Translations under genes and position numbers: made by a program
The notes under the pieces: generated by a model
Seen by the model: the letters and a program-made list of their open reading frames with translations, nothing else
The model's database searches: none
Told to the model about the DNA's origin: nothing
Assembly: GCA_020848315.1 (NCBI GenBank)
Contig: JADLAH010000288.1
Coordinates: forward strand, 1-14,963
Direction of reading: 5' to 3'
DNA: 14,963 nt
Origin: Chitinophagales bacterium
Lineage (GTDB): Bacteria; Bacteroidota; Bacteroidia; Chitinophagales; JADIYW01
In this document: positions 2,818-14,587 of the stretch, piece by piece
How positions within the stretch are numbered: position 1 is the first letter of the stretch
How the letters are laid out: every line of letters starts with the position of its first letter

Positions 2818-3447
2818 TCAGAAGGCTTTCAGTAGCTTGATTTCATTTCTGTACAGCAGTATTTTCTGATCGTTTTCCAGTTTTTTCAGTAATCTGGAAA
2901 TAACCACGCGGTTGGTACCAAGGTCTTCCGCAATCTGCTGATGGGATAGCTGAAGCGCTGATTTTTCAGATACTTCCGACTTTTTTCTCAGATAATTGAT
3001 CAGCCTTTCATCCAGTTTTTCAAATGCAATGACATCAATCGTTTTCATGAGTTCGATGAAACGATCATTGAAACTGCGCATGATGTAGTTTTTCCAGCTC
3101 GGATATTTGCAAAGCCATTCATCCAGTTTGATGTGCGGAATGGCAAGCAGTTCCACGTCGTCTTCCGCGATGGCTTTAACCTCACTTTTTTTGGCTTCAA
3201 TACAGCAACTGTATGCCATCGAACAACTTTCATTGTTGGTGAGGTAATAGAGTAAAATTTCTTTTCCGTTCTCGTCCATGCGGGATACTTTCACCGTTCC
3301 TTTCAGAATAACGGGCATCATGCGCACATACTTTCCGTAATCCATGATGATATCGCCTTCCTTGAAGGACTTGATGTCACCGAATTGATACATCTCCTGT
3401 ACCAATGCAGGTTCAAAGGCAAGTTCCAGATTAGGATATTTGTTCAT
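2818..3447 (-). CDS. Crp/Fnr-family transcriptional regulator with a Cys motif, last gene of the sulfur block
   Basis: This 209-residue protein has an N-terminal cyclic-nucleotide-type beta-barrel (about 22-115), a long dimerisation helix (about 116-150) and a winged helix-turn-helix (about 166-190, SHQQIAEDLGTNRVVISRLL). The position where FNR carries its DNA-reading Glu is Val here. Three cysteines in the effector domain (C75, C81, C82 in ESCSMAYSCC) resemble a motif seen in other Bacteroidota members. They could sense redox state or persulfides, which is inference. They are not arranged like the N-terminal cluster-binding cysteines of FNR. The ATG is 1 bp after the stop of the porin gene, indicating co-transcription, so this is probably a local regulator of the sulfur operon. 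No effector can be named from sequence. Confidence 0.88.
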   Translation of the reverse strand: MNKYPNLELAFEPALVQEMYQFGDIKSFKEGDIIMDYGKYVRMMPVILKGTVKVSRMDENGKEILLYYLTNNESCSMAYSCCIEAKKSEVKAIAEDDVELLAIPHIKLDEWLCKYPSWKNYIMRSFNDRFIELMKTIDVIAFEKLDERLINYLRKKSEVSEKSALQLSHQQIAEDLGTNRVVISRLLKKLENDQKILLYRNEIKLLKAF

Positions 3448-3448
3448 G

Positions 3449-4870
3449 TCAGAAATGATAGTTAATTACGAGATTATACGATACCATGTCGGTTTTGTTA
3501 ATCACGAATTTAGCATTATTATACGTTTCTCCCACATTTATTTTTCCGGCAATCAGGAATTGTGCTTCCAGTCCTTTCATTCTGCCCGGAAACTGATAGC
3601 GGATATCGAGATTGATTTGTGAATAGGTTGGCAGTCCGTATTTGTTGAGTAGGAAGTCTTTCACGTCCGGCATTTTGTAATACCCGCCCGCCAGGGAAAA
3701 TTTCAGATTAATCTTCTGTACGTTGTAGTTGATTTTTCCCATCACGGCATGCACATCCCCAAATCCTTCATTGCGTTCTCTGGGAAGAAAAGTAAAGAAC
3801 GGATCGCGTCCCCATTCCCGCGGCATCAGATATCTGCCGTGGTCAGTAATGCGGTTGTAGTTCGCGCTGATTTCAAAAGCCTTGTTTTTCCACCCGAGCT
3901 TCGCGCCGAATGTCATGGCTTTCGCGCCCTTGTCAAAGTATGTCTTGGCCGGATCGGCATTGCCGCCGTCTTTCAGCGCATCCTGCCGTATCATCTGTCC
4001 GGCCGCGAAGAGGGTATTGTCTTTAAAGCGATATTGCAGGTCTGCCTGCACCAATAGCGAGTTGGAGATATTGTGGGTATACATATCCCAAAGATGGAGT
4101 TGGAGATATTTTACGGGCGCCCACTGAAAGCCAGCCATGGCAATAACCTTGCTGTTAAGATGTTCCGCGTATTCGGATTTGGTGCCATCGGTGTTGACGC
4201 CACCCGGATATAGCCCGATAGATTCTCCCGGATTAAACCAGCCTACTGTGCTGCGTGGTGAGATATTGTGTAAAATACCACCTTCGATGTGCAGTGTCTT
4301 CACTTCATCTATACTCAGCCATAATCCGGAGACGGAGGTAGGCCGCATGCGTCCGTCCTGCAGGTTGATGAATGGCGTATTGATAAATTGTCTTCCGAAA
4401 AGCACATAGGATTTGCGGAAATTATATTTGAGATAGATTTCTTCCAGATCGGCGATGTCTCTTTTGTTTTTCGGATTTTGTATGTCAAACAGCCCGATTT
4501 CATATCTGTTGAGTTGACCGGATGCCGAATCGGGCTTGCTGAGGTCGGAGGAGCCGATATTGAAAATAAAGGAGCCGCTCATGCCCACCTGAAATCCGTG
4601 GAAAGGAGCTGTTTCATACCGAAGTGCGCCGCCCAATGCGTTGGCAAAATAGTCGGTCAGTTCTTTTTTGTTGTCGGTGTACATAAAGAAATAACGCAGG
4701 TGTACATCCACATCACCGGATTTAATGGCGTGCAGAAAAGTAGTGGAATCCTTGGCTCTGTTGAGCATTCCTTTCCACATGCTTGGTTTTTCTGATATTT
4801 CCTGATGTTGCGCCATGCTGATTTGGACAAAAAGTATGGCTGACAACACACTAAGTAGTTGTTTTTTCAT
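3449..4870 (-). CDS. OprD-like outer-membrane porin
   Basis: The 473-residue product starts with a signal peptide (MKKQLLSVLSAILFVQISMAQ) and continues with the alternating polar/aromatic pattern of transmembrane beta-strands up to a terminal YNLVINYHF, ending in Phe as outer-membrane barrels do. Motifs such as VHLRYFFMYTDN near the N-terminus, YVLFGRQFINTPFI and the FEISANYNRITDHGRYLMPREWGRDPF region resemble OprD/outer-membrane porin families in Bacteroidota. OprD-type porins form 18-stranded channels for small charged solutes. Placed between the DsrE-like and Crp/Fnr genes in a sulfur operon, it may admit thiosulfate, tetrathionate or a related anion; that substrate is inference. It lies 38 bp downstream of the DsrE-like gene. 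Barrel assignment is firm, specificity is not. Confidence 0.82.
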   Translation of the reverse strand: MKKQLLSVLSAILFVQISMAQHQEISEKPSMWKGMLNRAKDSTTFLHAIKSGDVDVHLRYFFMYTDNKKELTDYFANALGGALRYETAPFHGFQVGMSGSFIFNIGSSDLSKPDSASGQLNRYEIGLFDIQNPKNKRDIADLEEIYLKYNFRKSYVLFGRQFINTPFINLQDGRMRPTSVSGLWLSIDEVKTLHIEGGILHNISPRSTVGWFNPGESIGLYPGGVNTDGTKSEYAEHLNSKVIAMAGFQWAPVKYLQLHLWDMYTHNISNSLLVQADLQYRFKDNTLFAAGQMIRQDALKDGGNADPAKTYFDKGAKAMTFGAKLGWKNKAFEISANYNRITDHGRYLMPREWGRDPFFTFLPRERNEGFGDVHAVMGKINYNVQKINLKFSLAGGYYKMPDVKDFLLNKYGLPTYSQINLDIRYQFPGRMKGLEAQFLIAGKINVGETYNNAKFVINKTDMVSYNLVINYHF

Positions 4871-4908
4871 GATGTTGAGTTTGGTGGAATGAACCGGTTT
4901 GTTGTCGG

Positions 4909-5352
4909 CTAGAACCCTGACTTGATATAACTCCAGCCGGCTTCCTGTTTGCTGACTATTTCAATGATGCCGGCCTTTACATAAGCTGCTTCCGAAATAA
5001 TCTGTTCTTTGGCCACATTTCTTTCTTTCATAGAGAATTCACAAGCCACAAATGAAATTCCTTTAGCATTCATCTGAGTAATCTTGTCGTGCACCGTTGT
5101 TTTGCTTTGTACCAGCATATCCAGTCCCGGGCCATGGCACACCACTTCAATCTGTGTGCTAGGTTCCACAGTAGTGATATTGTTCAATTGCTTCATCAGC
5201 GCCTTGTGGGCGAGCGTGTCATTGGTGGTTAGCTGAAAGATGATTCTGTGTGCTGCTTTCACTTCTGATTTGCCTTTTGTCTTTGCAGGTTTTCCTGCGT
5301 ATATGCTGAAGATGGAAACGCTCAATAAAAGCAATAATGCTAATTTTTTCAT
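4909..5352 (-). CDS. Exported DsrE-family sulfur-carrier-like protein
   Basis: The ATG at 5352 begins a clear signal peptide (MKKLALLLLLSVSIFSIYAG). The frame continues upstream, but only inside the SoxB-like gene, so I use this start (147 residues). The mature part has the DsrE/DsrF-like fold pattern: a HRIIFQL strand, LKQLNNI-type helix, an EVVCHGPG turn with a Cys, and a second Cys in VACEFSMKERNV at the position where DsrE-like proteins carry their sulfur-binding residue. DsrE-family proteins bind or relay sulfane sulfur as persulfides. Most characterised ones are cytoplasmic, whereas this one should be periplasmic, beside the SoxB-like and cytochrome products. It lies 17 bp after the SoxB-like gene. 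A role as sulfur acceptor for those enzymes is inference. Confidence 0.82.
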   Translation of the reverse strand: MKKLALLLLLSVSIFSIYAGKPAKTKGKSEVKAAHRIIFQLTTNDTLAHKALMKQLNNITTVEPSTQIEVVCHGPGLDMLVQSKTTVHDKITQMNAKGISFVACEFSMKERNVAKEQIISEAAYVKAGIIEIVSKQEAGWSYIKSGF

Positions 5353-5369
5353 AATCGTATTTTTTGTCG

Positions 5370-7073
5370 TTATCTGAATTCGTATTTCACACCGTGTACT
5401 TGAGTCAGCAAAGTCTGAGGTGCATCCAGGATCTTCGCGGACATCGGCAGTTGCGGAGTTACCGGCGAGTTGGCCTGCAGGTATTCCCGCATCACGGAGT
5501 GCAGTGTATAAGTCGTATTCTTCGCATTTTTTACGCCCTTGATGCGGCACAGCATATCCATCGGATCGCCGTCGCGTTCGCAGGCGCATATGCTGTATTC
5601 TCTGTTCAGGTCTAATGGTTGCTTGCCTACCATAACCGATTGCACACGCTGTCCTTTAGGGGCAAAAGCCTTGAAGGTGATTTGCATTCCCTTGAATTTA
5701 ATGACCCAGCCGCCAAATCGTTCCACCGCATTTTCCGCGAATACATTATTCAATTCCTTTTCCAGCCAATCCTGTATTTGTTTGCCCGTCACGACAGCTG
5801 TTCTTACCACACTGTCCACCGGCAGCATATCATAGATAAATCCGTTGGTAATCGGAATATTGCCGGTTTTATCGGGCGTGGAACGCGGGGGACAGAAACG
5901 GAATCCGTTGGAAAGCACGATGTCAATGCCGTCCATCTTCCATTTCAACGCATCCAGGATCATGGTGTCAATGGTGTTTTCCACCACAAAATAGCGATAC
6001 AACGGAAGTGTGCTATAGCCGATAATCTTATGAATGTCATTTTCAAAAGGACCTTCATTGGCAGCGATGATAGCATCCATTTCCTTGTCAGCTTTGTATT
6101 CATCAGCATCAATCTCATCCAGGTGGTAAGATTCCTGTATGATTTTGCCATCCTGTATAGTGAGGTCAAGCCGACCTACAAAAGAGCCAAATGCACCGGG
6201 TTCTACTACCTTGGCATATTTGCCGATAATCGGTTCGCGCACCCGTTCATGTGTGTCGCCACCCAGAATATAATCCACGCCTTCACATTCCGGTAAGTTG
6301 GAAAGATGTATCTGCTGTGAAAGTCCGAGGTGAGCCAGTATAATGACAAAGGCGCATTGCTCTTGATTTTTCAATACATCCACATAGTGCGCGAGATTGT
6401 CTTCCGGTTTGCTGTATACGATGCCCTTGCTGTAGTTCGGCGACTGCCGCAGCGGCACCAGCGGATCGGTATATCCGAGGAATCCGATTTTTATACCTGC
6501 TACCTGCCAGATATGATAGGCCGGAAAAATGAGTTCTCCTTTTTTGCCTTCTCCCAGGTCGTGATACATATTGGCACATACCTTAGGCGCATTCAGTGAA
6601 CCCAGTAGTGTTTGCATGGCTTTTTTGTAATAAATCACTTCCCAGTTGCCGGGCAGATACAAATCATATCCGAGTGCATTGAGAATCGGAATCATCGCTT
6701 TGCCGGTTGTTTTTACGGATAATTCGCTGCCCTGAAACATATCGCCGGTATCAATCAGCAATGAATGCGCATATTTTCTGCGGGTTTTGTTGAGGTAACT
6801 CGCCAGATGTGCATATCCACCGGTTTTGCGGAATACCGCCTGATTGTTTTCCCAGAAAAGTTCGTCGTGTGCGTGCACCTGACAGTGAACATCCGTTGTC
6901 TGCAAAATGGAAACAGTAACGGGTTTGCTTTTTTTACCGCCGGATTTCACTTTCTTCTCGGAACCGGCTGTTGTAGCAGCATCCGCTGCCATGGGTGTAG
7001 CAGAGATAATTCCCAGACCGGCGCCGAGAGCGCTCAGCTTTTTGAGGAAATCTCTTCTGTTGTTGGTCTTCAT
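5370..7073 (-). CDS. soxB: SoxB-like thiosulfohydrolase / 5'-nucleotidase-family metallohydrolase, Tat-exported
   Basis: This 567-residue protein has a twin-arginine signal (NRRDFLKKLSALGAGLG, R6-R7) and a two-domain 5'-nucleotidase/SoxB architecture. Metallophosphatase motifs seen are D61-x-H63, GDMFQGS (D111), GNWE (N143), AHLG (H248) and GGDTH (H275). The Trp in GNWE replaces the His of true nucleotidases (GNHE), a feature of SoxB. The C-terminal domain (about 350-550) contains the 5'-nucleotidase-C pattern (NGFIYDMLPVDS, GKQIQDWLE, RFGGWVIKFKGM). SoxB hydrolyses sulfate from SoxY-bound thiosulfonate in the periplasm. No soxYZ, soxXA or soxCD is in this window, so the substrate is open. 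One oddity is Asp273 where the family usually has His (GGHTH). It sits 34 bp after the TsdA-like cytochrome gene. A divergent nucleotidase cannot be excluded. Confidence 0.8.
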   Translation of the reverse strand: MKTNNRRDFLKKLSALGAGLGIISATPMAADAATTAGSEKKVKSGGKKSKPVTVSILQTTDVHCQVHAHDELFWENNQAVFRKTGGYAHLASYLNKTRRKYAHSLLIDTGDMFQGSELSVKTTGKAMIPILNALGYDLYLPGNWEVIYYKKAMQTLLGSLNAPKVCANMYHDLGEGKKGELIFPAYHIWQVAGIKIGFLGYTDPLVPLRQSPNYSKGIVYSKPEDNLAHYVDVLKNQEQCAFVIILAHLGLSQQIHLSNLPECEGVDYILGGDTHERVREPIIGKYAKVVEPGAFGSFVGRLDLTIQDGKIIQESYHLDEIDADEYKADKEMDAIIAANEGPFENDIHKIIGYSTLPLYRYFVVENTIDTMILDALKWKMDGIDIVLSNGFRFCPPRSTPDKTGNIPITNGFIYDMLPVDSVVRTAVVTGKQIQDWLEKELNNVFAENAVERFGGWVIKFKGMQITFKAFAPKGQRVQSVMVGKQPLDLNREYSICACERDGDPMDMLCRIKGVKNAKNTTYTLHSVMREYLQANSPVTPQLPMSAKILDAPQTLLTQVHGVKYEFR

Positions 7074-7107
7074 GGCAGATGTTTTGAGAAGTGAAAAAAA
7101 AGTCGGT

Positions 7108-8187
7108 TTATTTTTTAGCGCTCTTTTTCTGTTGATCTACTATTGGCTGGAATGGTCCGAACTTATGCTGTTGTTCGCTGAATCCATCGGAAAACGGACC
7201 GAAAGGATGGTCGACCGGTTTTTTGGAAATATCCGGCCAGTCCTTAGGTGCATTTTTATGAGGTCGTGGCTGTGAATTCACAAAAGCCGCCAGATCCCAG
7301 GCTTCCTCATCTGTCAATTGCGTATTGTCGTGCGTTACGCCCAATGGCATATTGGATTTTACATATTTCGCAAAATTGGAAATTCGGTAAAGTCCCGCGC
7401 CGTCGTTGTAGCTGTTCTTGCCCCACAGTGGCGGGAATGCGTATCCCGTGCCATCCGCGTTCAGTGTTCCTTCGCCATTCGCCTGATGGCAGCTCTGACA
7501 TTTGGCTATATAAACGGTTTTGCCTTTTGCCGGATCAGCTGCTCTGTCGAGATAGGGCAGGTCCTTGAATCCTGAGCCTTTGGCTTTCTCGCCTTTCGGA
7601 ACATTGCTGCCGATATAGGAAATATAGGCTTTGATAGCCTGCATTTCTTTTCCCAATGTATCGAGCGGTTGCCCGTTCAGGCTTCGTTCAAAGCAGTCGT
7701 TGACACGTTTGTAAATATTCTCTTCCGTGCCACTTCGGGCTCTGAATTTCGGATACATCGAAGCTACAGAGCCGTAGTTGTTGCCGAAAGTCCGGGTGCC
7801 TGCATCGAGATGGCAGTTCTGACAGTTCATACCATTGCTGATTTGCATCACGCTGCCTTTAGGCCCCAGATATTTGGAGGTGTGCGCAATTAAATCCTCA
7901 CCGTATAATACCTGTGCTTTTAATTGCTCATCCTGAATCTCATCGATATCCGCTGGTGTCCAGAAGTCTTCGGCAGGGGCAGCAGTCGCTGACGCAGCCG
8001 GCAACTGAATAGTGGGTTGCTTTTTACCTTCCTTAAAATACTGTCCGATTTCATTGCGGTAAAAGATGAGTAAAGGCAATACAATAACAGCTACGACCAA
8101 CAGTAATATGATGCGCAACAAGCGATCCATAATCACCAGTATTTCTCGTTGTGGTGTGGATGGCATCTGATTGTTTTCGTTGCTCAT
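7108..8187 (-). CDS. tsdA: Dihaem cytochrome c, thiosulfate dehydrogenase (TsdA)-like, membrane anchored
   Basis: I chose the ATG at 8187, preceded by an AAGGA-type site, over upstream in-frame codons that overlap the transporter gene. The 359-residue product has a short cytoplasmic N-terminus, one membrane segment (about 22-43) and two c-type haem motifs, CQNCH (122-126) and CQSCH (230-234). The segment YGSVASMYPKFRAR followed by RVNDCFERSLNG (C165) matches TsdA, where a Cys is the unusual axial ligand of haem 1. M280 in NMPLG is a candidate ligand of haem 2. TsdA couples two thiosulfates to tetrathionate (or the reverse), exchanging electrons with other cytochromes. The tail after residue 305 is rich in Pro and Gly. 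SoxA-like cytochromes are the main alternative. It follows the transporter gene by 31 bp. Confidence 0.82.
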   Translation of the reverse strand: MSNENNQMPSTPQREILVIMDRLLRIILLLVVAVIVLPLLIFYRNEIGQYFKEGKKQPTIQLPAASATAAPAEDFWTPADIDEIQDEQLKAQVLYGEDLIAHTSKYLGPKGSVMQISNGMNCQNCHLDAGTRTFGNNYGSVASMYPKFRARSGTEENIYKRVNDCFERSLNGQPLDTLGKEMQAIKAYISYIGSNVPKGEKAKGSGFKDLPYLDRAADPAKGKTVYIAKCQSCHQANGEGTLNADGTGYAFPPLWGKNSYNDGAGLYRISNFAKYVKSNMPLGVTHDNTQLTDEEAWDLAAFVNSQPRPHKNAPKDWPDISKKPVDHPFGPFSDGFSEQQHKFGPFQPIVDQQKKSAKK

Positions 8188-8218
8188 TATTCCTTGTTTT
8201 AAGGTGATAACTGTTTTT

Positions 8219-8731
8219 TTAATGAGGCAGTTTCTCGCGCACGTAGCCATATACCCATGTGCCCACAATGGCACTCAGCAGGGTGATGGCAATGGCGGTG
8301 GCACCGGTGCCAATCTGCGCGAACAGTGGTCCCGGACACGCGCCTGTGATAGCCCATCCCAGACCAAACATCAATCCTCCGTACACCTGTCCTTTGTTAA
8401 AGGTTTTCGGGTGGAACTCAATAGTTTCACCGTAGATGGTTTTTATGTTGAATTTTTTAATCAGCCAAACGGATATAATGCCTACGAGAACGGCGCTGCC
8501 AATCACACCGTACATGTGGAATGATTGCAGGCGGAACATTTCCTGTATGCGGAACCAGCTAATGATTTCTGCTTTTACGAATACAATACCAAAGGCGATG
8601 CCCACGGCGCTGTATTTCAGGTTGTGATACCATTTATGGGTGAGATGACTCTCATTGACACACATCGTGTCGAGTGAGCGTACTTCAAAGTCGGTATTGG
8701 TTTCAACTTGTGGTGTTTCTATCTTTTGCAT
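8219..8731 (-). CDS. DUF6691/YeeE-type half transporter, second subunit
   Basis: This 170-residue membrane protein has about four hydrophobic segments (40-58, 72-91, 115-135, 142-163) and the motif GWAITGACPGPLFAQIG with C132. That motif is typical of the shorter partner of split YeeE/YedE (PmpB/DUF6691-like) transporters. In the full-length YeeE/TsuA thiosulfate importer, conserved cysteines relay the substrate through the membrane, and C132 is the likely equivalent here. It lies 10 bp downstream of the other half gene, so the two probably form one channel for thiosulfate or another sulfur species. The 36-residue polar N-terminal extension is of unknown role. Family is firm; cargo is inference. 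Confidence 0.85.
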   Translation of the reverse strand: MQKIETPQVETNTDFEVRSLDTMCVNESHLTHKWYHNLKYSAVGIAFGIVFVKAEIISWFRIQEMFRLQSFHMYGVIGSAVLVGIISVWLIKKFNIKTIYGETIEFHPKTFNKGQVYGGLMFGLGWAITGACPGPLFAQIGTGATAIAITLLSAIVGTWVYGYVREKLPH

Positions 8732-8741
8732 GCTGTCGGAT

Positions 8742-9311
8742 TTAGAGTGATAAAATAAATGGAAGAATGAAGTTAGCCATCAGGAAACCGCCTACCATAA
8801 AACAGCAGGTAGCTACCAAAGAAGGCCATTGCAGCGTGGATAATCCCATAATGGCATGACCGCTGGTACAACCGCCGGCATATCGTGTGCCGAAGCCTAC
8901 CATAAAGCCACCCAGAACCATCATGATGAATCCTTTCAGCGTCAGTACATTGGACCAGTTAAACAACTGCACCGGTACTAATCCGGAGAAGTCGGTGATG
9001 CCGTAGGTAGCCAGTTCCTGCGCCAGGTTTTCATTTACCTGTACCGGCTCCGGACTGGATAATAACCATGCGGCAATCATACCACCAAAGAAAATACCTG
9101 TTACAAAAAATAAATTCCATACCTCTTTTTTCCAGTCGTATTTAAAGAACGGAATGTTAGCAGGGACACAGGCAGCACATACGTGTCTGAGAGAAGAGCT
9201 GATGCCAAAGGATTTATTTCCGATAATCAGCAAGATAGGAACTGTAAGGCCTATTAATGGACCGGCCACATACCATGGCCAGGGTTGTTTGATAAATTCG
9301 ATGATATTCAT
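8742..9311 (-). CDS. YeeE/YedE-type half transporter, first subunit
   Basis: This 189-residue inner-membrane protein has about five hydrophobic stretches and the YeeE/YedE signature [13 protein letters not shown] (C148 in residues 146-158). Two further cysteines sit in RHVCAACVP (45, 48) and two in ATCCF (169-170). It corresponds to the PmpA-like half of a split sulfur-compound transporter, with the 8219-8731 gene as partner. In the family, the conserved cysteines hold thiosulfate by S-H-S contacts during passage. Its neighbours (rhodaneses upstream, cytochrome and SoxB-like genes downstream) support a sulfur cargo. The gene follows the rhodanese lipoprotein by 35 bp; that gap carries a short repeated ACTAACTTT sequence that could be a weak internal promoter. 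Confidence 0.86.
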
Positions 9312-9346
9312 GATGATGATATTTTTATAAAGTTAGTCAATAAAAG

Positions 9347-9682
9347 TTAGTTGCACTTAACTGTCTGCCACGGTCCTTTGTTCTCCGCATTTCTGTAGCC
9401 TTGCTGCTCCAGTAAATGCTGTGCATAGCTGGCGCGATTGCCGCTTCTGCAGACTAAGACCACCTTGTCATACTGTTTGAGTTCTTCGATGTGTGAGGCA
9501 AACTGATCCAACGGATAGTTTACACTGCAGTCTGCATGTCCGTCATATTCCCATTCTTCCTGGCTTCTGACGTCTACTATAATTGTTTTCATCTCTTTTG
9601 ATTTTTGGGCTTCCTGCTTGGTCTGACTGTTACAGGAGGTAATGGTCAGCAGCAGTACGATGGATAATAAGAAAGTTCTCAT
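9347..9682 (-). CDS. Rhodanese-domain lipoprotein
   Basis: The 111-residue product begins with a lipoprotein signal (MRTFLLSIVLLLTITSC, lipobox ending at C17), so it should be anchored in the membrane facing the periplasm. A single rhodanese domain follows, with DVRSQEEWEYDGH (37-49) and the active-site loop VCRSGNRAS (C78 nucleophile). Rhodaneses accept sulfane sulfur as a cysteine persulfide and pass it to acceptors. The Ser-Gly-Asn-Arg loop is the same as in the neighbouring cytoplasmic rhodanese. Start and stop overlap the upstream gene as ATGA (9679-9682), a sign of translational coupling. Together the two would give one sulfurtransferase on each side of the membrane; the flow direction is not known. 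Confidence 0.9.
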   Translation of the reverse strand: MRTFLLSIVLLLTITSCNSQTKQEAQKSKEMKTIIVDVRSQEEWEYDGHADCSVNYPLDQFASHIEELKQYDKVVLVCRSGNRASYAQHLLEQQGYRNAENKGPWQTVKCN

Positions 9683-9993
9683 TTTACGTATTGTTTTACA
9701 TTGCCCCAGGAACCGCCGTTGTATACGTTCTGGATGCCGTTTTTTTCCAGTATTCGTTTTGCTTCGCCACTCCTGTTGCCGCTTCGGCAGAATACCACAA
9801 TGGCGTCTTTGCCTTTGAATTTGGTTATCTGTGAGGACACTCTGTCCAGTGGGATATTGACAGATCCTTTAATGTGGCCTGCCGCAAATTCCTGTGGTGT
9901 TCTTACGTCTACCAGAAATGCGCCTTGTTGGATAATATTTGCCAGTTGCGGTGCATTGGAATTGCCGAACATGTTTTTTATTAAATTGAGCAT
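9679..9993 (-). CDS. Single-domain cytoplasmic rhodanese sulfurtransferase
   Basis: This 104-residue protein has no signal peptide and one complete rhodanese domain, with DVRTPQEFAAGHIKGSVNIP (29-48) and active-site loop FCRSGNRSG (C69 nucleophile). It resembles small GlpE/PspE-like sulfurtransferases that move sulfur between thiosulfate or persulfides and thiol acceptors. It is the first gene of the leftward nine-gene block and overlaps the next gene by 4 bp. Upstream there are only 74 bp to the CstB-like gene, most of it taken by a hairpin, and no convincing promoter, so expression may depend on read-through from the CstB-like gene. Confidence 0.92.
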   Translation of the reverse strand: MLNLIKNMFGNSNAPQLANIIQQGAFLVDVRTPQEFAAGHIKGSVNIPLDRVSSQITKFKGKDAIVVFCRSGNRSGEAKRILEKNGIQNVYNGGSWGNVKQYVK

Positions 9994-10018
9994 AGTATTG
10001 TTTTTTGGTATTTAAAAT

Positions 10019-10048
10019 AACACAGGCAGTTTGAGTGCTGCCTGTGTT
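10019..10048 (-). terminator. Hairpin between CstB-like gene and rhodanese gene; possible partial terminator
   Basis: An 11-bp perfect inverted repeat (AACACAGGCAG / CTGCCTGTGTT) with an 8-base loop lies 20 bp after the CstB-like stop. On the minus strand it is followed by ATTTTAAATA, only a modest T-run, so termination may be incomplete. It is the only strong hairpin I noticed among the leftward sulfur genes. Confidence 0.65.
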
Positions 10049-10067
10049 GTTATAGGGAGTTGTTTGC

Positions 10068-11483
10068 TTATGCCGTCATTACTTTGCTTTGGCAAACGAA
10101 ATCTGTTTTTGGAACGGATGTTTTCGCGATCTCGCCGAAACCACCAGCAATTTCTGTGAAGTTGCGGTAACCTCTGGCTTGCAGGATGGAAGCAGCAGAC
10201 ATACTTCTGTAGCCACCGCCACAGTGCATGAAAAAGTGCTCCTGTGGATTGACATCCTTGATCCAGTCGTTGATGTATTGCAGTGGTCTGTTGTAAGCAT
10301 CTTCTACGTGCTCGGCAGCGTATTCACTTTCTTTACGAACGTCGAGTACTTTGCTTTCACCTTTTTTGAATAATCCTGCAAACTGTTCCGCTGTGATGCG
10401 ATCAATAACATCTGCCTGTTTGCCGGAAGCCAGCCATGCCGCAAATCCACCTTTCAGATGTCCGAGGATATTGTCGAATCCTACGCGGCTCAGGCGTGTA
10501 ACGGTTTCTTCTTCCTTACCTTCATCTGTTACCAGAATCAGCGGTTGTTTTACATCAGCAATCAGTGCGCCCACCCACGGTGCAAAATCGCCATTGAGAC
10601 TGATGTTGACAGATTGCGGGATAAATCCTTTGTAGAATTCATTGTGGTCTCTGGAGTCCAGAATCAACGCGCCGGTAGCCTCTGCCACTGTTTCGAGTTC
10701 GTCTGGCGTCAGGCCTTTCATGCCGTTGTTCAGAATGGTTTCAAAACTGTCGTATCCTTTCTTGTTCATGGCCACATTCATCGGGAAATAAGCCGGAGGC
10801 GGGAGTAAACCGTCAGTTACCGCTTTGATGAATGCTTCCTTATTAGGTTGGTTCAGCGCGTAGTTCATTTTTTTCTGGTTGCCCAGTGTGTCTACGGTTT
10901 CTTTCATCATGTTTTTACCGCATGCACTGCCTGCACCGTGTGCCGGATATACAATCACATCATCCGCGAGTGGCATAATCTTAGTAGTCAGACTTTCATA
11001 CAGCAATCCAGCCAGATCTTCCATTGTCATGTTGGCTGCTTTCTGTGCCAGGTCAGGTCGCCCCACGTCACCTAAGAATAAAGTGTCTCCGGAGAAGATA
11101 GCATGGTCTTTGCCGTTTTCATCTCTCAACATGAAGGTGGTACTTTCCATCGTGTGTCCCGGTGTATGTAATACCTTGATGGTCACATTGCCTAATTTGA
11201 ACTCCTGACCGTCTGTTGCAATGATAGCGTCAAACTCAGGTTTTGCGTTTGGTCCGTAAATAATCGGCGCACCTGTTTTTTTACTCAAATCAACGTGGCC
11301 GGAAACGAAGTCAGCGTGGAAGTGCGTCTCAAAAATGTATTTGATCTGCACGTTGTCTTTCGTTGCTCTGTCGATATAAGGTTGTGTTTCACGCAGCGGG
11401 TCAATGATGGCAGCCTCTCCGTTCGAAGTGATGTAGTAGGCACCCTGTGCCAGACATCCTGTGTAAATTTGTTCTATTTTCAT
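10068..11483 (-). CDS. CstB-like persulfide dioxygenase fused to two rhodanese domains
   Basis: The frame could begin at GTG 11492, but ATG 11483 matches the usual family start (MKIEQIYTGCLAQGAYYI), giving 471 residues. Residues 1-240 are a metallo-beta-lactamase fold with H54-x-H56-x-D58, H110 (HTPGH), D133 (SGDTLF) and H182, as in ETHE1-type iron persulfide dioxygenases. Residues about 265-355 are a rhodanese fold lacking the nucleophile (D320 in LVTDEGK). Residues about 362-460 are a second rhodanese with active C421 (HCGGGYRS). This dioxygenase, pseudo-rhodanese, rhodanese order is that of Staphylococcus CstB, which turns low-molecular-weight persulfides into thiosulfate and sulfite in the cytoplasm. 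Thiosulfate would be handled by the genes downstream. Two GTAAC-N4-GTTAC operators lie upstream. Assignment is by motif and domain order only. Confidence 0.88.
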   Translation of the reverse strand: MKIEQIYTGCLAQGAYYITSNGEAAIIDPLRETQPYIDRATKDNVQIKYIFETHFHADFVSGHVDLSKKTGAPIIYGPNAKPEFDAIIATDGQEFKLGNVTIKVLHTPGHTMESTTFMLRDENGKDHAIFSGDTLFLGDVGRPDLAQKAANMTMEDLAGLLYESLTTKIMPLADDVIVYPAHGAGSACGKNMMKETVDTLGNQKKMNYALNQPNKEAFIKAVTDGLLPPPAYFPMNVAMNKKGYDSFETILNNGMKGLTPDELETVAEATGALILDSRDHNEFYKGFIPQSVNISLNGDFAPWVGALIADVKQPLILVTDEGKEEETVTRLSRVGFDNILGHLKGGFAAWLASGKQADVIDRITAEQFAGLFKKGESKVLDVRKESEYAAEHVEDAYNRPLQYINDWIKDVNPQEHFFMHCGGGYRSMSAASILQARGYRNFTEIAGGFGEIAKTSVPKTDFVCQSKVMTA

Positions 11484-11549: not shown

Positions 11550-11563
11550 GTAACTTTTGTTAC
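11550..11563. promoter_or_regulatory. Crp/Fnr-type operator 1, GTAAC-TTTT-GTTAC
   Basis: A perfect 5-bp inverted repeat with a 4-base spacer, the geometry of FNR-type sites. Its centre is about 41 bp before the inferred start site of the CstB-like gene, the class II activator position. It is part of a 20-bp sequence repeated exactly 90 bp upstream. Confidence 0.7.
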
Positions 11564-11639: not shown

Positions 11640-11653
11640 GTAACTTTTGTTAC
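11640..11653. promoter_or_regulatory. Crp/Fnr-type operator 2, GTAAC-TTTT-GTTAC
   Basis: Identical to operator 1 and 90 bp upstream of it, 13 bp after the end of the methyltransferase gene. It could serve a second, distal promoter for the CstB-like gene or bind the regulator cooperatively over about 8-9 helical turns. Confidence 0.62.
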
Positions 11654-11666
11654 GTTCGCCGCTGGC

Positions 11667-12305
11667 TTATTTTTTCTCCAGTTCTATGAATAGTTCTGTA
11701 TTGGCTCTTTTGAAATAGGAATTATAACAAGGCTCAAAATGGCACATGTTGAAATAAGGTGCAAACATCGGATGGTATTCTTCTGCCGTGCCACCGAAAG
11801 GTGGTCCCTGAAATTCAAAAGTGCGATTGAACAGAACGCCAGCCAGTTTGCCGTTTTCTGCCAATAGTTCGTGCATTTTCTTGACATAGGCACTACGAAG
11901 AATCGGATCCAGTGCACAGAAAAATGTTTGCTCAATAATCAGATCGTATTGCCCTTTGTGTTCAAAGAAATCACCCAGTATGATTTTTATATTCGGATGG
12001 TTCGCGAATTGTTGTTTCAGTTTCTCCACCAGTGTCGGCGCGATGTCAATTACCGTAATGTCGGTAAAGCCTGCCTCCAGCAAATAAGCTGCTTCGTATG
12101 CATTGCCACAGCCCGGAATCAGGATGCGTATATTTTTATTGGTTAGTCCATCCGCGTAGGCTTTGATGGGCGGAGATACTTCTCCCATATCCCAACCGGT
12201 GGTATTGGATTGGTACTGCTGATCCCAGAACGATTGACCTAAGTCGCGCTCCGAAGGTGTGGTGCAGCACGCCTGATTAATTTTGTTACTGTTTTCCTTA
12301 TTCAT
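11667..12305 (-). CDS. TPMT-family thiol/thiopurine S-methyltransferase-like protein
   Basis: I chose ATG 12305 (MNKENSNKINQACC) because the upstream extension would run into the exporter gene; length is 212 residues. Residues 25-48 (SFWDQQYQSNTTGWDMGEVS) are the N-terminal hallmark of the thiopurine methyltransferase/halide-thiol methyltransferase family. ILIPGCGNAYEA (61-72) is the SAM-binding loop, and IDIAP (86-90), GDFFE (111-115) and EQTFFCALDP (125-134) follow in the expected order. Relatives methylate thiols, and some plant and bacterial relatives methylate bisulfide or halides. In this setting sulfide or methanethiol is an attractive substrate, but this is inference. It lies 26 bp after the TauE-like gene and probably shares its transcript. 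Cytoplasmic. Confidence 0.86.
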   Translation of the reverse strand: MNKENSNKINQACCTTPSERDLGQSFWDQQYQSNTTGWDMGEVSPPIKAYADGLTNKNIRILIPGCGNAYEAAYLLEAGFTDITVIDIAPTLVEKLKQQFANHPNIKIILGDFFEHKGQYDLIIEQTFFCALDPILRSAYVKKMHELLAENGKLAGVLFNRTFEFQGPPFGGTAEEYHPMFAPYFNMCHFEPCYNSYFKRANTELFIELEKK

Positions 12306-13186: not shown

Positions 13187-13200
13187 GTAACAATAGTTAC
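13187..13200. promoter_or_regulatory. Crp/Fnr-type operator 3 between tauE-like and crp/fnr genes
   Basis: GTAAC-AATA-GTTAC, extended by one more pair to TGTAAC/GTTACA. The centre is near -41 for the TauE-like promoter. It is 64 bp before the ATG of the divergent Crp/Fnr gene, so the same site could allow that regulator to control itself. Confidence 0.72.
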
Positions 13201-13263
13201 ACAACGATTTTCGTTTTTGTTATGCTGTATAATATTAAGCATTTTTTGTATTATTGTGTAGCT

Positions 13264-13863
13264 ATGACAGGTCAGGAATTACTACTTCGGAACATTGCCC
13301 GTTTTATTGCGCTCGATGAAGCGGAAATAAGTTTTCTGTTGTCTTCGCTCAAGGTGAAAAAATTGCGCAAGAGGCAGTATTTCCTGCAGGAAGGGGATGT
13401 CTCCAAATGGCAGGCCTTCGTATGTCAGGGTTGCATGCGGGTGTTCGAAGTGGACGAAAAAGGCGTGGAACATGTCATTCAGTTTGCGCCCGAAGACTGG
13501 TGGGTAGGCGATTTGTACAGCTTTTACACGGGGCAGCCTACACGACTGAATGTAGAGGCCATGGAAGATACGGAGTTGTATATCTTTGACAAGGACGCGC
13601 TGGACGTGCTGTACGAAAAGATCCCCAAGTTTGAACGTTATTTCAGATTGCTGATGCAGAATGCGCTGATAGCCTTACAGGAACGCGTTTTATCTTCGAT
13701 GTCGCGCACGGCTTCCGAGCGGTACGATGATTTCATCCGCCGCTATCCGCAGATAGAACAGCGCGTACCCAATCATCAGATAGCCTCTTATCTGGGTATC
13801 AAACCGGAATCGCTGAGCCGCATCCGCAGTCAGTCGCTGCAGAAGAGGAAGTCAAACTCTTAA
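13264..13863 (+). CDS. Crp/Fnr-family transcriptional regulator, divergent from the exporter operon
   Basis: ATG 13264 (MTGQELLLRNIARF) gives a normal 199-residue protein. An in-frame ATG at 13222 would add 14 unlikely residues, so I prefer the later one. It has a cNMP-type barrel (about 25-115, with LQEGDVSKWQAFVCQGCMRVF), a dimerisation helix (about 118-148) and a helix-turn-helix at about 168-190. The recognition helix PESLSR carries the Glu-x-x-Ser-Arg pattern of the FNR/FixK group. Residues usual for cAMP binding (the GELA...RSA stretch) are absent, and there is no FNR-like Cys cluster, so the signal is unknown. The operator at 13187-13200 in its own promoter region, with two more copies before the CstB-like gene, makes it the leading candidate to control the exporter and the persulfide-oxidation gene. 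Confidence 0.88.
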   Translation: MTGQELLLRNIARFIALDEAEISFLLSSLKVKKLRKRQYFLQEGDVSKWQAFVCQGCMRVFEVDEKGVEHVIQFAPEDWWVGDLYSFYTGQPTRLNVEAMEDTELYIFDKDALDVLYEKIPKFERYFRLLMQNALIALQERVLSSMSRTASERYDDFIRRYPQIEQRVPNHQIASYLGIKPESLSRIRSQSLQKRKSNS

Positions 13864-13919
13864 CGTATATCAATTAAATTTCTTAAGCCACATCATTCCC
13901 CGGGTGTGCCTATTTGTAG

Positions 13920-13927
13920 CAACTTTG
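13920..13927 (+). promoter_or_regulatory. Possible -7 box (CAACTTTG) of the YceI gene
   Basis: The same octamer as at the CstB-like promoter, one base from TAnnTTTG, 21 bp before the YceI ATG. No palindromic operator and no clear -33 box were found upstream, so this is a weak call. Confidence 0.4.
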
Positions 13928-13948
13928 CAGTACAAAAATGTTACAGAT

Positions 13949-14587
13949 ATGAAAACAACAATGCACCTGCTGAACACCATGACATCATGGGTAGGCAAAA
14001 AAGCCACGATAGCGGCTTTCATAACATTCGGATTCCTGAGCGCTCAGGCACAAACACCTGCCACCGTGTGGAATCTCGATAAATCACATTCCGCGGTTTC
14101 TTTCGAAATCGATCACATGGTGATTTCTGAAGTACAAGGTAAATTCAACGAGTTTACGGCAGATGTAAAAGCGGATAAAGCGGATTTTACAGATGTAAAA
14201 GGTACGATTACCATCGCGCTGAAAAGTATCGATACGGATAATGACAAACGCGATGAGCACCTGCGCAGCGCAGATTTCTTTGACGTAGAAAAAAATCCGA
14301 ACATGACTTTCGTAATTAAAAAATTCACGAAAGTAAGCGGCAAGCAGTACAAAGTAACCGGTGACTTAACGCTGAACGGTATCACCAAAACGGTTACGCT
14401 GAACGCGAAATTTGGCGGCATTATCAAAGATCCTTGGGGACTGACCCGTACAGGTATCACAGTAACCGGAGAAATTGACCGTTACGCATTCGGTCTGAAA
14501 TACAATGCAGCACTCGAAGCCGGCGGATTGACCATCGGACAGAAAGTAAATATTAAAGTGGCGTTGGAATTTACGAAAGCAAATTAA
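13949..14587 (+). CDS. YceI-family periplasmic lipid-binding-like protein
   Basis: ATG 13949 (MKTTMHLL) is the most likely start. An ATG 12 bp later is also possible, and both lead into the same signal peptide ending near SAQAQ (residues 31-35). The mature part is a single YceI domain: WNLDKSHSAVSFEIDHMVISEVQGKF-type start, DKRDEHLRSADFFDVEKNP in the middle, and GLTRTGITVTGEIDRYAFGLKYN near the end, all hallmarks. The family forms lipocalin-like barrels that bind polyisoprenoids or other amphiphiles in the periplasm, often linked with stress or quinone-related functions. It follows the Crp/Fnr gene by 85 bp and is closed by a strong terminator. Whether it belongs functionally to the sulfur genes is not shown. 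Confidence 0.93.
   Translation: MKTTMHLLNTMTSWVGKKATIAAFITFGFLSAQAQTPATVWNLDKSHSAVSFEIDHMVISEVQGKFNEFTADVKADKADFTDVKGTITIALKSIDTDNDKRDEHLRSADFFDVEKNPNMTFVIKKFTKVSGKQYKVTGDLTLNGITKTVTLNAKFGGIIKDPWGLTRTGITVTGEIDRYAFGLKYNAALEAGGLTIGQKVNIKVALEFTKAN

What the first reader, a model, noticed from the sequence alone, without database searches (positions are those of the whole stretch)
2818..9993. Nine-gene envelope sulfur operon with SoxB-like and TsdA-like enzymes but no SoxYZ, SoxXA or SoxCD
Seen: nine leftward genes with gaps of -4 to 38 bp, encoding two rhodaneses, a split YeeE transporter, a TsdA-like dihaem cytochrome, a Tat-exported SoxB-like hydrolase, an exported DsrE-like protein, an OprD-like porin and a Crp/Fnr regulator. 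Known: SoxB works on sulfur bound to the SoxYZ carrier, and TsdA makes tetrathionate. Inference: this may be a self-contained Bacteroidota pathway in which the SoxB-like enzyme acts on a carrier other than SoxY, or directly on a free sulfur compound.
Basis: partly seen in the sequence, partly recalled or inferred. Interest (0 to 1): 0.72.

Follow-up and report, generated by a model that had tools for sequence, protein, structure and literature searches.

The report
Bacteroidota thiosulfate-oxidation operon without Sox carrier
A widespread gene set in Bacteroidota probably oxidises thiosulfate by joining two molecules and then cutting the product with a divergent SoxB-like enzyme; it is a new variant of a recently described pathway and may supply a step reported as missing in these bacteria.

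Summary
The nine leftward genes are real. New here: (1) the SoxB-like protein is a distinct clade (GNWEV, DTHER) far below NCBI's SoxB cut-off (239 vs 550 bits), lacking the nucleotidase catalytic His. (2) No soxY in 77 genomes with this gene, no soxZ or over-cut-off soxA in 48; TsdA-like in 48 of 48, but 11 of 14 in a phylum sample. (3) A palindrome, GTAAC-N4-GTTAC, stands upstream; a variant precedes many unlinked SoxB-like genes and some unlinked TsdA clusters. (4) Exported DsrE is missing from 16 of 48 genomes, so it is no obligate carrier. Most likely TsdA makes tetrathionate, the SoxB-like enzyme releases sulfate from it, and rhodaneses, YeeE and a sulfur dioxygenase handle the sulfane sulfur. 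The chemistry is inferred.

The parts
9679..9993 (-). single-domain rhodanese without visible signal (CRSGNRS)
   Evidence: PF00581 66 bits
9347..9682 (-). rhodanese with lipoprotein-like signal
   Evidence: PF00581 48.6 bits; signal read by eye
8742..9311 (-). YeeE/YedE-type transporter half, Cys45 and Cys148 in 60 of 60 rows
   Evidence: PF04143 64.4 bits
8219..8731 (-). second YeeE-type half (DUF6691), Cys132 in 61 of 62 rows
   Evidence: PF04143 and PF20398
7108..8187 (-). TsdA-like dihaem cytochrome c with N-terminal hydrophobic anchor; Cys165, R151, R161, S169 in 60 of 60 rows; Asn279-Met280
   Evidence: PF21342; A. vinosum TsdA 4wqc E 6.2e-44
5370..7073 (-). Tat-exported SoxB-like hydrolase, GNWEV and GGDTHER motifs
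4909..5352 (-). exported DsrE-family protein, Cys104 in 36 of 36 rows
   Evidence: PF02635; PDB 1l1s E 3.5e-9
3449..4870 (-). OprD-type outer-membrane porin
   Evidence: PF03573 40.8 bits
2818..3447 (-). Crp/Fnr regulator CRP1
   Evidence: PF00027, PF13545
10068..11492 (-). metallo-beta-lactamase with two rhodanese matches (sulfur/persulfide dioxygenase type), likely ATG at 11483
   Evidence: PF00753, PF00581 two stretches
10019..10048 (-). terminator-like hairpin between MBL gene and nine-gene block
11667..12305 (-). TPMT-type methyltransferase
   Evidence: PF05724 102 bits
12332..13135 (-). TauE/SafE exporter
   Evidence: PF01925 142.6 bits
11550..11563 (.). operator-like palindrome GTAACTTTTGTTAC, 66 bp before the likely MBL ATG
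11640..11653 (.). operator-like palindrome, second copy
13187..13200 (.). operator-like palindrome GTAACAATAGTTAC, 51 bp before the likely TauE ATG
13222..13863 (+). second Crp/Fnr-like regulator, divergent from TauE; link to the system not tested
   Evidence: PF00027

Best explanation
A Bacteroidota version of the TsdA-SoxB thiosulfate pathway. Inferred steps: thiosulfate enters the periplasm through the OprD-type porin; the membrane-anchored TsdA-like cytochrome oxidises two thiosulfates to tetrathionate and passes electrons to the respiratory chain; the SoxB-like enzyme hydrolyses a terminal sulfonate from tetrathionate, giving sulfate and sulfane sulfur; the lipoprotein rhodanese, DsrE (when present) and the two-part YeeE transporter pass sulfane sulfur inward; the cytoplasmic rhodanese and the MBL-rhodanese dioxygenase oxidise it to sulfite, which TauE exports. 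A Crp/Fnr-type regulator, perhaps CRP1, acts through GTAAC-N4-GTTAC sites. Shown by sequence: gene content, residues, co-occurrence, absence of SoxY and SoxZ from the genomes searched, shared sites. Not shown: every reaction, the direction of TsdA, and binding of the regulator.
For: TsdA-like in all 48 distinct SoxB-like genomes given, also where the genes are unlinked. In 296 phylum-wide genomes 11 of 14 SoxB-like genomes have TsdA-like against 23 of 282 others, Fisher p 2.6e-9, kinship not corrected. SoxY in 0 of 77 distinct SoxB-like genomes (Paracoccus control rings), SoxZ 0 of 48 with 3 of 3 controls, SoxA over cut-off 0 of 48 with 2 of 3 controls. TsdA catalytic residues in 60 of 60 rows (roles from PMC4423706, passages). 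Trp where nucleotidases have the catalytic His, 87 of 87 rows; best PDB sequence match is T. thermophilus SoxB, E 8.3e-32. Palindromes upstream. A second SoxB-like type stands in the same neighbourhood on a Hymenobacter plasmid. Knockout precedent in E. flavus (PMC7608252; abstract, passages, sections 17, 18, 20).
Against: Three of 14 SoxB-like genomes in the phylum sample gave no full TsdA-like match: G230 none, G395 one weak match, G195 only the tail beside SoxB-like with the rest reading N. Twenty-three genomes have TsdA-like without this SoxB-like clade. The fold search ranks a putative nucleotidase (3ive) first and SoxB second, so fold does not discriminate. Asp273 replaces a metal-site His kept in the SoxB and nucleotidase rows compared. 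Asn precedes the haem-2 Met, as in the C. jejuni enzyme that serves as tetrathionate reductase (PMC5146829, passages). Exact palindromes are found on both the SoxB-like and the TsdA side in only 2 of 11 unlinked genomes. The E. flavus SoxB was not compared.
Confidence: 0.6

Rival explanations
1. The SoxB-like enzyme acts on a protein-bound thiosulfonate other than SoxY: DsrE or the lipoprotein rhodanese is the carrier.
For: DsrE is exported and Cys104 is invariant in 36 of 36 rows; canonical SoxB acts on a protein Cys-S-thiosulfonate (PMC5336275, passages).
Against: DsrE of this type is absent from 16 of 48 SoxB-like genomes. Nine of those 16 have TsdA-like and SoxB-like in one locus (L007, L014, L016, L019, L032, L035, L041, L044, L053). 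The rhodanese was not tested in the same way.
Confidence: 0.12
2. It is an ordinary 5'-nucleotidase or phosphoesterase that sits in a sulfur cluster by chance.
For: Pfam domains are those of 5'-nucleotidases; top fold hit is 3ive.
Against: Catalytic His replaced by Trp and the partner Asp position changed, GNWEV in 87 of 87 rows; coupling to TsdA, also when unlinked.
Confidence: 0.07
3. TsdA runs backwards as a tetrathionate reductase, and the cluster serves tetrathionate respiration and sulfur detoxification.
For: Asn before the haem-2 Met in 58 of 60 rows as in C. jejuni TsdA (PMC5146829, passages); TsdA enzymes work both ways (PMC6879331, listing).
Against: Company of an MBL-rhodanese protein of the O2-dependent dioxygenase type and a TauE exporter; a sulfate-releasing hydrolase would compete for tetrathionate. 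C. jejuni wild type is about equally fast both ways in vitro (1316 and 1265 units/mg, PMC5146829 passages).
Confidence: 0.1
4. A sulfur assimilation or persulfide detoxification cluster, with SoxB-like making sulfate or sulfane for biosynthesis rather than energy.
For: YeeE-type proteins serve thiosulfate uptake for assimilation in other bacteria (PMC11073785, listing only); persulfide dioxygenases detoxify elsewhere (recalled).
Against: A cytochrome stands at the centre; field reports call Sediminibacterium and Algoriphagus sulfur oxidisers (PMC10086054, PMC11294248, PMC12584484, passages).
Confidence: 0.11

Closest known systems
TsdA-SoxB-SdoA/B pathway of Erythrobacter flavus 21-3 (PMC7608252)
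   Same: TsdA plus SoxB homolog, no SoxYZ, MBL-rhodanese dioxygenase; the authors list Bacteroidetes among holders of both genes
   Different: Here a separate SoxB-like clade, Crp/Fnr gene and palindromes, two-part YeeE, OprD, DsrE; no experiments. Distance to the E. flavus protein not measured, and their supplementary species table not seen
Canonical SoxB (T. thermophilus 2wdc; Paracoccus; TIGR04486)
   Same: Fold (2wdf TM 0.77); Trp in place of the nucleotidase His
   Different: 27% identity to Paracoccus SoxB, GNWE not SHWE, DTH not HTH, no SoxYZ
TsdA of Allochromatium vinosum and Campylobacter jejuni
   Same: Two haem sites, Cys ligand, R/R/S residues, Met ligand
   Different: Membrane anchor, conserved C-terminal tail; Asn before Met as in C. 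jejuni, not Lys as in A. vinosum
Short two-part YeeE-type proteins (PmpA/PmpB type, PMC11582611, passages)
   Same: Two short YeeE-like proteins in place of one long one, each with conserved Cys
   Different: Here 170 and 189 aa and next to sulfur genes; the studied PmpAB pair had no shown sulfur role
Tetrathionate oxidation of Advenella kashmirensis (cited in PMC7608252; original not read)
   Same: SoxB proposed to act in tetrathionate oxidation
   Different: Needs a thiol partner enzyme and other Sox parts (recalled)

Membership tests
canonical thiosulfohydrolase SoxB (TIGR04486) | score over curated cut-off 550 bits | tested here: not met
   238.9 bits; five relatives 222-292; Paracoccus control 861
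canonical thiosulfohydrolase SoxB (TIGR04486) | SoxYZ carrier in the genome | tested here: not met
   SoxY 0 of 77, SoxZ 0 of 48, controls ring; own genome 85% complete
canonical thiosulfohydrolase SoxB (TIGR04486) | Trp replaces nucleotidase catalytic His | tested here: met
   W144 in 87 of 87 rows; same column as Trp of Paracoccus SoxB
canonical thiosulfohydrolase SoxB (TIGR04486) | first His of the HTH metal motif | tested here: not met
   D273 in 86 of 87 rows
canonical thiosulfohydrolase SoxB (TIGR04486) | thiosulfohydrolase activity | not testable with these tools
   needs assay
5'-nucleotidase (UshA/CD73 type) | catalytic His-Asp dyad in GNHxxD (role recalled) | tested here: not met
   GNWEVI
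thiosulfate dehydrogenase TsdA | two CxxCH, Cys haem ligand, R109/R119/S127 equivalents | tested here: met
   60 of 60 rows
thiosulfate dehydrogenase TsdA | thiosulfate-tetrathionate activity and its direction | not testable with these tools
   needs assay
TsdA-SoxB pathway (E. flavus type) | tsdA and soxB homolog without soxYZ | tested here: met
TsdA-SoxB pathway (E. flavus type) | SoxB homolog at 40% or more to the query SoxB proteins used in PMC7608252 | not tested
   E. flavus sequence not fetched; to Paracoccus ferrooxidans SoxB 27%
TsdA-SoxB pathway (E. flavus type) | loss of sulfur formation on deletion | not testable with these tools
   needs mutants
Sox multienzyme pathway | SoxXA, SoxYZ, SoxB, SoxCD | tested here: not met
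   SoxY, SoxZ and over-cut-off SoxA not found; SoxX, SoxC, SoxD not searched separately

The most novel reading that the evidence does not exclude
TsdA is itself the carrier: the SoxB-like enzyme cuts the sulfonate from the Cys-S-thiosulfonate that forms on TsdA's haem-ligand cysteine, so one cytochrome does the work of SoxAX and SoxYZ and tetrathionate need never be free. The known TsdA intermediate (PMC4423706, passages) bears the same chemical group as SoxB's normal substrate, and TsdA-like was present in 48 of 48 SoxB-like genomes given.
Probability: 0.12. Interest if true: 0.75.

Novelty: new variant of a known kind. Interest (0 to 1): 0.52.

Why it matters
Field studies count Sediminibacterium and Algoriphagus among sulfur oxidisers on the strength of tsdA. 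One reports that Sediminibacterium was the only sulfur oxidiser in it that encoded no sox genes, and suggests that genera with only tsdA may couple with tetH-bearing Thiobacillus for the next step (PMC11294248, passages). Here a SoxB-like gene stands directly behind tsdA in Sediminibacterium, e.g. S. salmoneum NBRC 103935 (L044), scoring too low to be called SoxB (221.7 of 550 bits). If it works as proposed, the second step is inside the same cell, such genes are misannotated as 5'-nucleotidases (as on the Runella and Pontibacter plasmids), and sulfate and acidity budgets of such waters change. Named cultured strains carry it, so it can be tested.

Tried and rejected
DsrE as an obligate SoxY substitute: rejected as a general rule, 16 of 48 genomes lack it. 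Plain nucleotidase: disfavoured by active-site residues. The conserved TsdA C-terminal tail as a SoxB-like docking site: matches in TsdA-like proteins of genomes without the SoxB-like clade also run to about residue 348-357, so the tail is not specific. Fold comparison did not separate SoxB from nucleotidase. Algoriphagus loci first looked like counter-examples (no operon around SoxB-like), but the Algoriphagus genomes given to carry TsdA, in the ten fetched in a separate sulfur cluster (an eleventh unlinked stretch, L136 of a Bernardetiaceae genome, shows TsdA with OprD only). Literature on the operator found nothing relevant (listing). The VIA-align library was unavailable. The DsrE model (ticket) was still unfinished.

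Rows dropped or chosen before counts: G389 (31% identity) left out of the 14 SoxB-like genomes; G038 counted with G072 as one genome because both give the same TsdA place; L081 is the window itself. Genome-wide searches for TsdA, SoxZ, SoxA and DsrE were given 44 of the 80 search for related loci genomes, picked by me mostly for longer stretches, plus the own genome and relatives; SoxY was given 73 of the 80.
Full report
OBSERVATION. The window is bases 1-14963 of contig C288 of a 2.2 Mb, 352-contig, 85% complete genome. Nine minus-strand genes fill 2818-9993 with gaps of -4 to 38 bp. Upstream on the same strand lie an MBL-rhodanese gene, a TPMT-type methyltransferase and a TauE exporter. A terminator-like hairpin separates the MBL gene from the nine-gene block (-18.4 kcal/mol, z -5.4).

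CONSERVATION. One scan of genome contigs gave 282 relatives of the SoxB-like protein; the best 80 were kept (best-segment identity 69-75%). By their titles the records are Bacteroidota, except one titled 'bacterium' and one titled Streptomyces griseus, probably a mislabelled bin. Of 85 loci clustered (80 plus 5 from the genome search, one the window itself, one a repeat), homologs stand in the same locus as follows: TsdA-like 57, YeeE halves 47 and 42, OprD 43, rhodanese 35, DsrE 34, CRP1 34, MBL 31, TauE 30. Many contigs are short, so these are lower bounds. In 27 of the 80 loci no other window sulfur gene was found; 20 of these are titled Algoriphagus and some others are very short.

PARTNERS. 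TsdA-like is in 49 of 49 SoxB-like handles given (48 distinct genomes), best E at most 1e-120, and not in the Paracoccus control record. In the ten Algoriphagus genomes fetched it lies in its own cluster with YeeE, MBL and OprD genes. In a sample of 296 genomes of the phylum, 14 have the SoxB-like clade (43-100% identity; a fifteenth hit at 31% left out), 34 have TsdA-like, 11 both; Fisher p 2.6e-9, not corrected for kinship. Of the three misses, G195 shows a TsdA-like tail beside SoxB-like with the rest reading N, G230 has no match and G395 a weak one. Twenty-three genomes have TsdA-like without this clade; whether they hold the other SoxB-like type was not tested.

NO SOX CARRIER FOUND. SoxY: 0 of 44 and 0 of 34 (Paracoccus control E 1.3e-31); with one duplicate removed, 77 genomes. 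In the phylum sample 35 of 296 have SoxY (34 over cut-off), none among the 14, which alone is not significant (p 0.39). SoxZ: 0 of 48, 3 of 3 controls. SoxA over cut-off: 0 of 48, 2 of 3 controls; the 49 sub-threshold matches all lie inside the TsdA-like places. SoxX, SoxC and SoxD were not searched separately.

THE SOXB-LIKE ENZYME. Against TIGR04486 it scores 238.9 bits, cut-off 550; five relatives score 222-292, two proteins of the other SoxB-like type 301 and 339, Paracoccus SoxB 861. In 87 aligned rows GNWEV is invariant; D273 is kept in 86 and THER in 87. Nucleotidase rows show GNHD and H[TS]H; Paracoccus SoxB and the other SoxB-like type show [SAV]HW[ED] and HTH. Exceptions: Sporosarcina has GNWD with HSH, G389 has GHWD, and my pattern did not match two Chlorobi SoxB rows. 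So the catalytic His is Trp, as in SoxB, the Asn is kept as in nucleotidases, and a metal-site His is Asp. A 38-row tree gives the clade 100/100, the other SoxB-like type 95/85 and canonical SoxB 100/100, with a warning about long canonical and nucleotidase branches. AlphaFold2: mean pLDDT 80.5. Foldseek: 3ive first (E 4.1e-38, TM 0.73), SoxB 4uwq second, SoxB 2wdf TM 0.77.

THE CYTOCHROME. Best PDB match A. vinosum TsdA (E 6.2e-44). Cys165, R151, R161 and S169, matching C123, R109, R119 and S127 of PMC4423706 (passages), are in 60 of 60 rows. Asn279-Met280 (58 and 60 of 60) is the C. jejuni arrangement; there Met is the ligand and the enzyme serves tetrathionate reduction though it works both ways (PMC5146829, passages). 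Direction cannot be read from sequence.

INTERCHANGEABLE PARTS. A Runella plasmid carries TauE, MBL, methyltransferase, TsdA-like, DsrE, SoxB-like, OprD and both YeeE halves. A Hymenobacter plasmid has rhodanese, both YeeE halves, TsdA-like, OprD and a DsrE protein, and 1.8 kb further the other SoxB-like type instead of this one. A Bradyrhizobium plasmid has that type beside a 34% TsdA-like cytochrome. Two unlike SoxB relatives in similar company suggest that a SoxB-type reaction is needed there.

REGULATION. GTAAC-N4-GTTAC occurs three times in the window (0.19 expected with one mismatch allowed; 0 of 200 shuffles reach three): two copies before the MBL gene, one before TauE. I chose the pattern after seeing the window's repeats. 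In 104 loci, window included, there are 41 exact copies against 0.64 expected; near-identical loci inflate this. Among 596 five-base palindromes of the same shape in the 80 loci and window it ranks third by count, behind A and T runs, and sixth by number of loci. In 24 loci with SoxB-like alone and 11 stretches with unlinked TsdA-like, the wider GTRAC-N4-GTYAC gives 17 sites in 645 kb, 0.55 expected, all 17 within 300 bp upstream of a SoxB-like (11), TsdA-like (4), YeeE (1) or OprD (1) gene. That wider pattern was set after looking at these loci; 13 of 24 and 6 of 11 have no exact site; both sides have one in only 2 of 11 genomes; and by raw count GTGAC palindromes are not the commonest there. 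Allowing one mismatch, 21 of 24 loci have a site in the 200 bp before SoxB-like, against 65 of 4800 random 200-bp windows of the same loci. Of 43 linked loci of 10 kb or more, all 17 with CRP1 at 68% identity or more have a site, 0 of 3 at 62-65%, 7 of 23 others, which fits CRP1 as the binder but follows kinship too.

KNOWN OR NEW. PMC7608252 (abstract, passages, sections 17, 18 and 20) shows by deletion that TsdA and a SoxB homolog convert thiosulfate to zero-valent sulfur, with tetrathionate as intermediate, in E. flavus, and lists Bacteroidetes among holders of both genes; its species table was not seen, so this clade may be in it. PMC12345210 (passages) makes the same inference for 8 of 21 MAGs with SoxB and no other sox gene. 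tsdA in Bacteroidetes is in print (PMC7887784, PMC10086054, PMC12584484, passages). In the listings of searches I saw no description of this SoxB-like clade, of the operon or of the operator; only open-licence papers are held. PMC11294248 (passages) says Sediminibacterium encoded no sox genes; three loci titled Sediminibacterium (L041, L044, L060) and three like them titled Sphingobacteriia (L032, L035, L053) carry SoxB-like behind tsdA.

VERDICT. A new variant of a known pathway, with an enzyme clade that standard models miss and a shared palindrome as the new facts. Reactions remain inferred.

Noticed in passing
window 11550-11563, 11640-11653, 13187-13200: Palindrome GTAAC-N4-GTTAC, conserved upstream of sulfur genes in relatives; likely operator of a Crp/Fnr regulator.
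   Followed up: yes
window 10019-10048: Stable terminator-like hairpin between the MBL gene and the nine-gene block; possible attenuation.
   Followed up: partly
L101 (Runella slithyformis plasmid pRUNSL04): Most of the sulfur set is plasmid-borne beside a replication gene, so it may move between strains.
   Followed up: partly
L102 (Pontibacter akesuensis plasmid), 3604-10533: Three nucleotidase-family genes of three different types stand within 7 kb, with TsdA-like and DsrE genes near.
   Followed up: partly
window 7108-7245: TsdA-like proteins here share a near-invariant C-terminal tail (DWPxxxKKPxDHPFGP...HKxGP) beyond the part aligned to A. vinosum TsdA; function unknown.
   Followed up: partly
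L105, L143 (Novosphingobium and Sphingobium plasmids): The other SoxB-like type stands with a short YeeE pair, MBL, TauE, TlpA, DsbA and a cytochrome bd oxidase.
   Followed up: no
L036: A record titled Streptomyces griseus MAG carries this Bacteroidota-type locus at 72% identity; probably a mislabelled bin.
   Followed up: no
window 13904-14587: YceI-family protein downstream of the second Crp-like gene; relation to the sulfur genes unknown.
   Followed up: no
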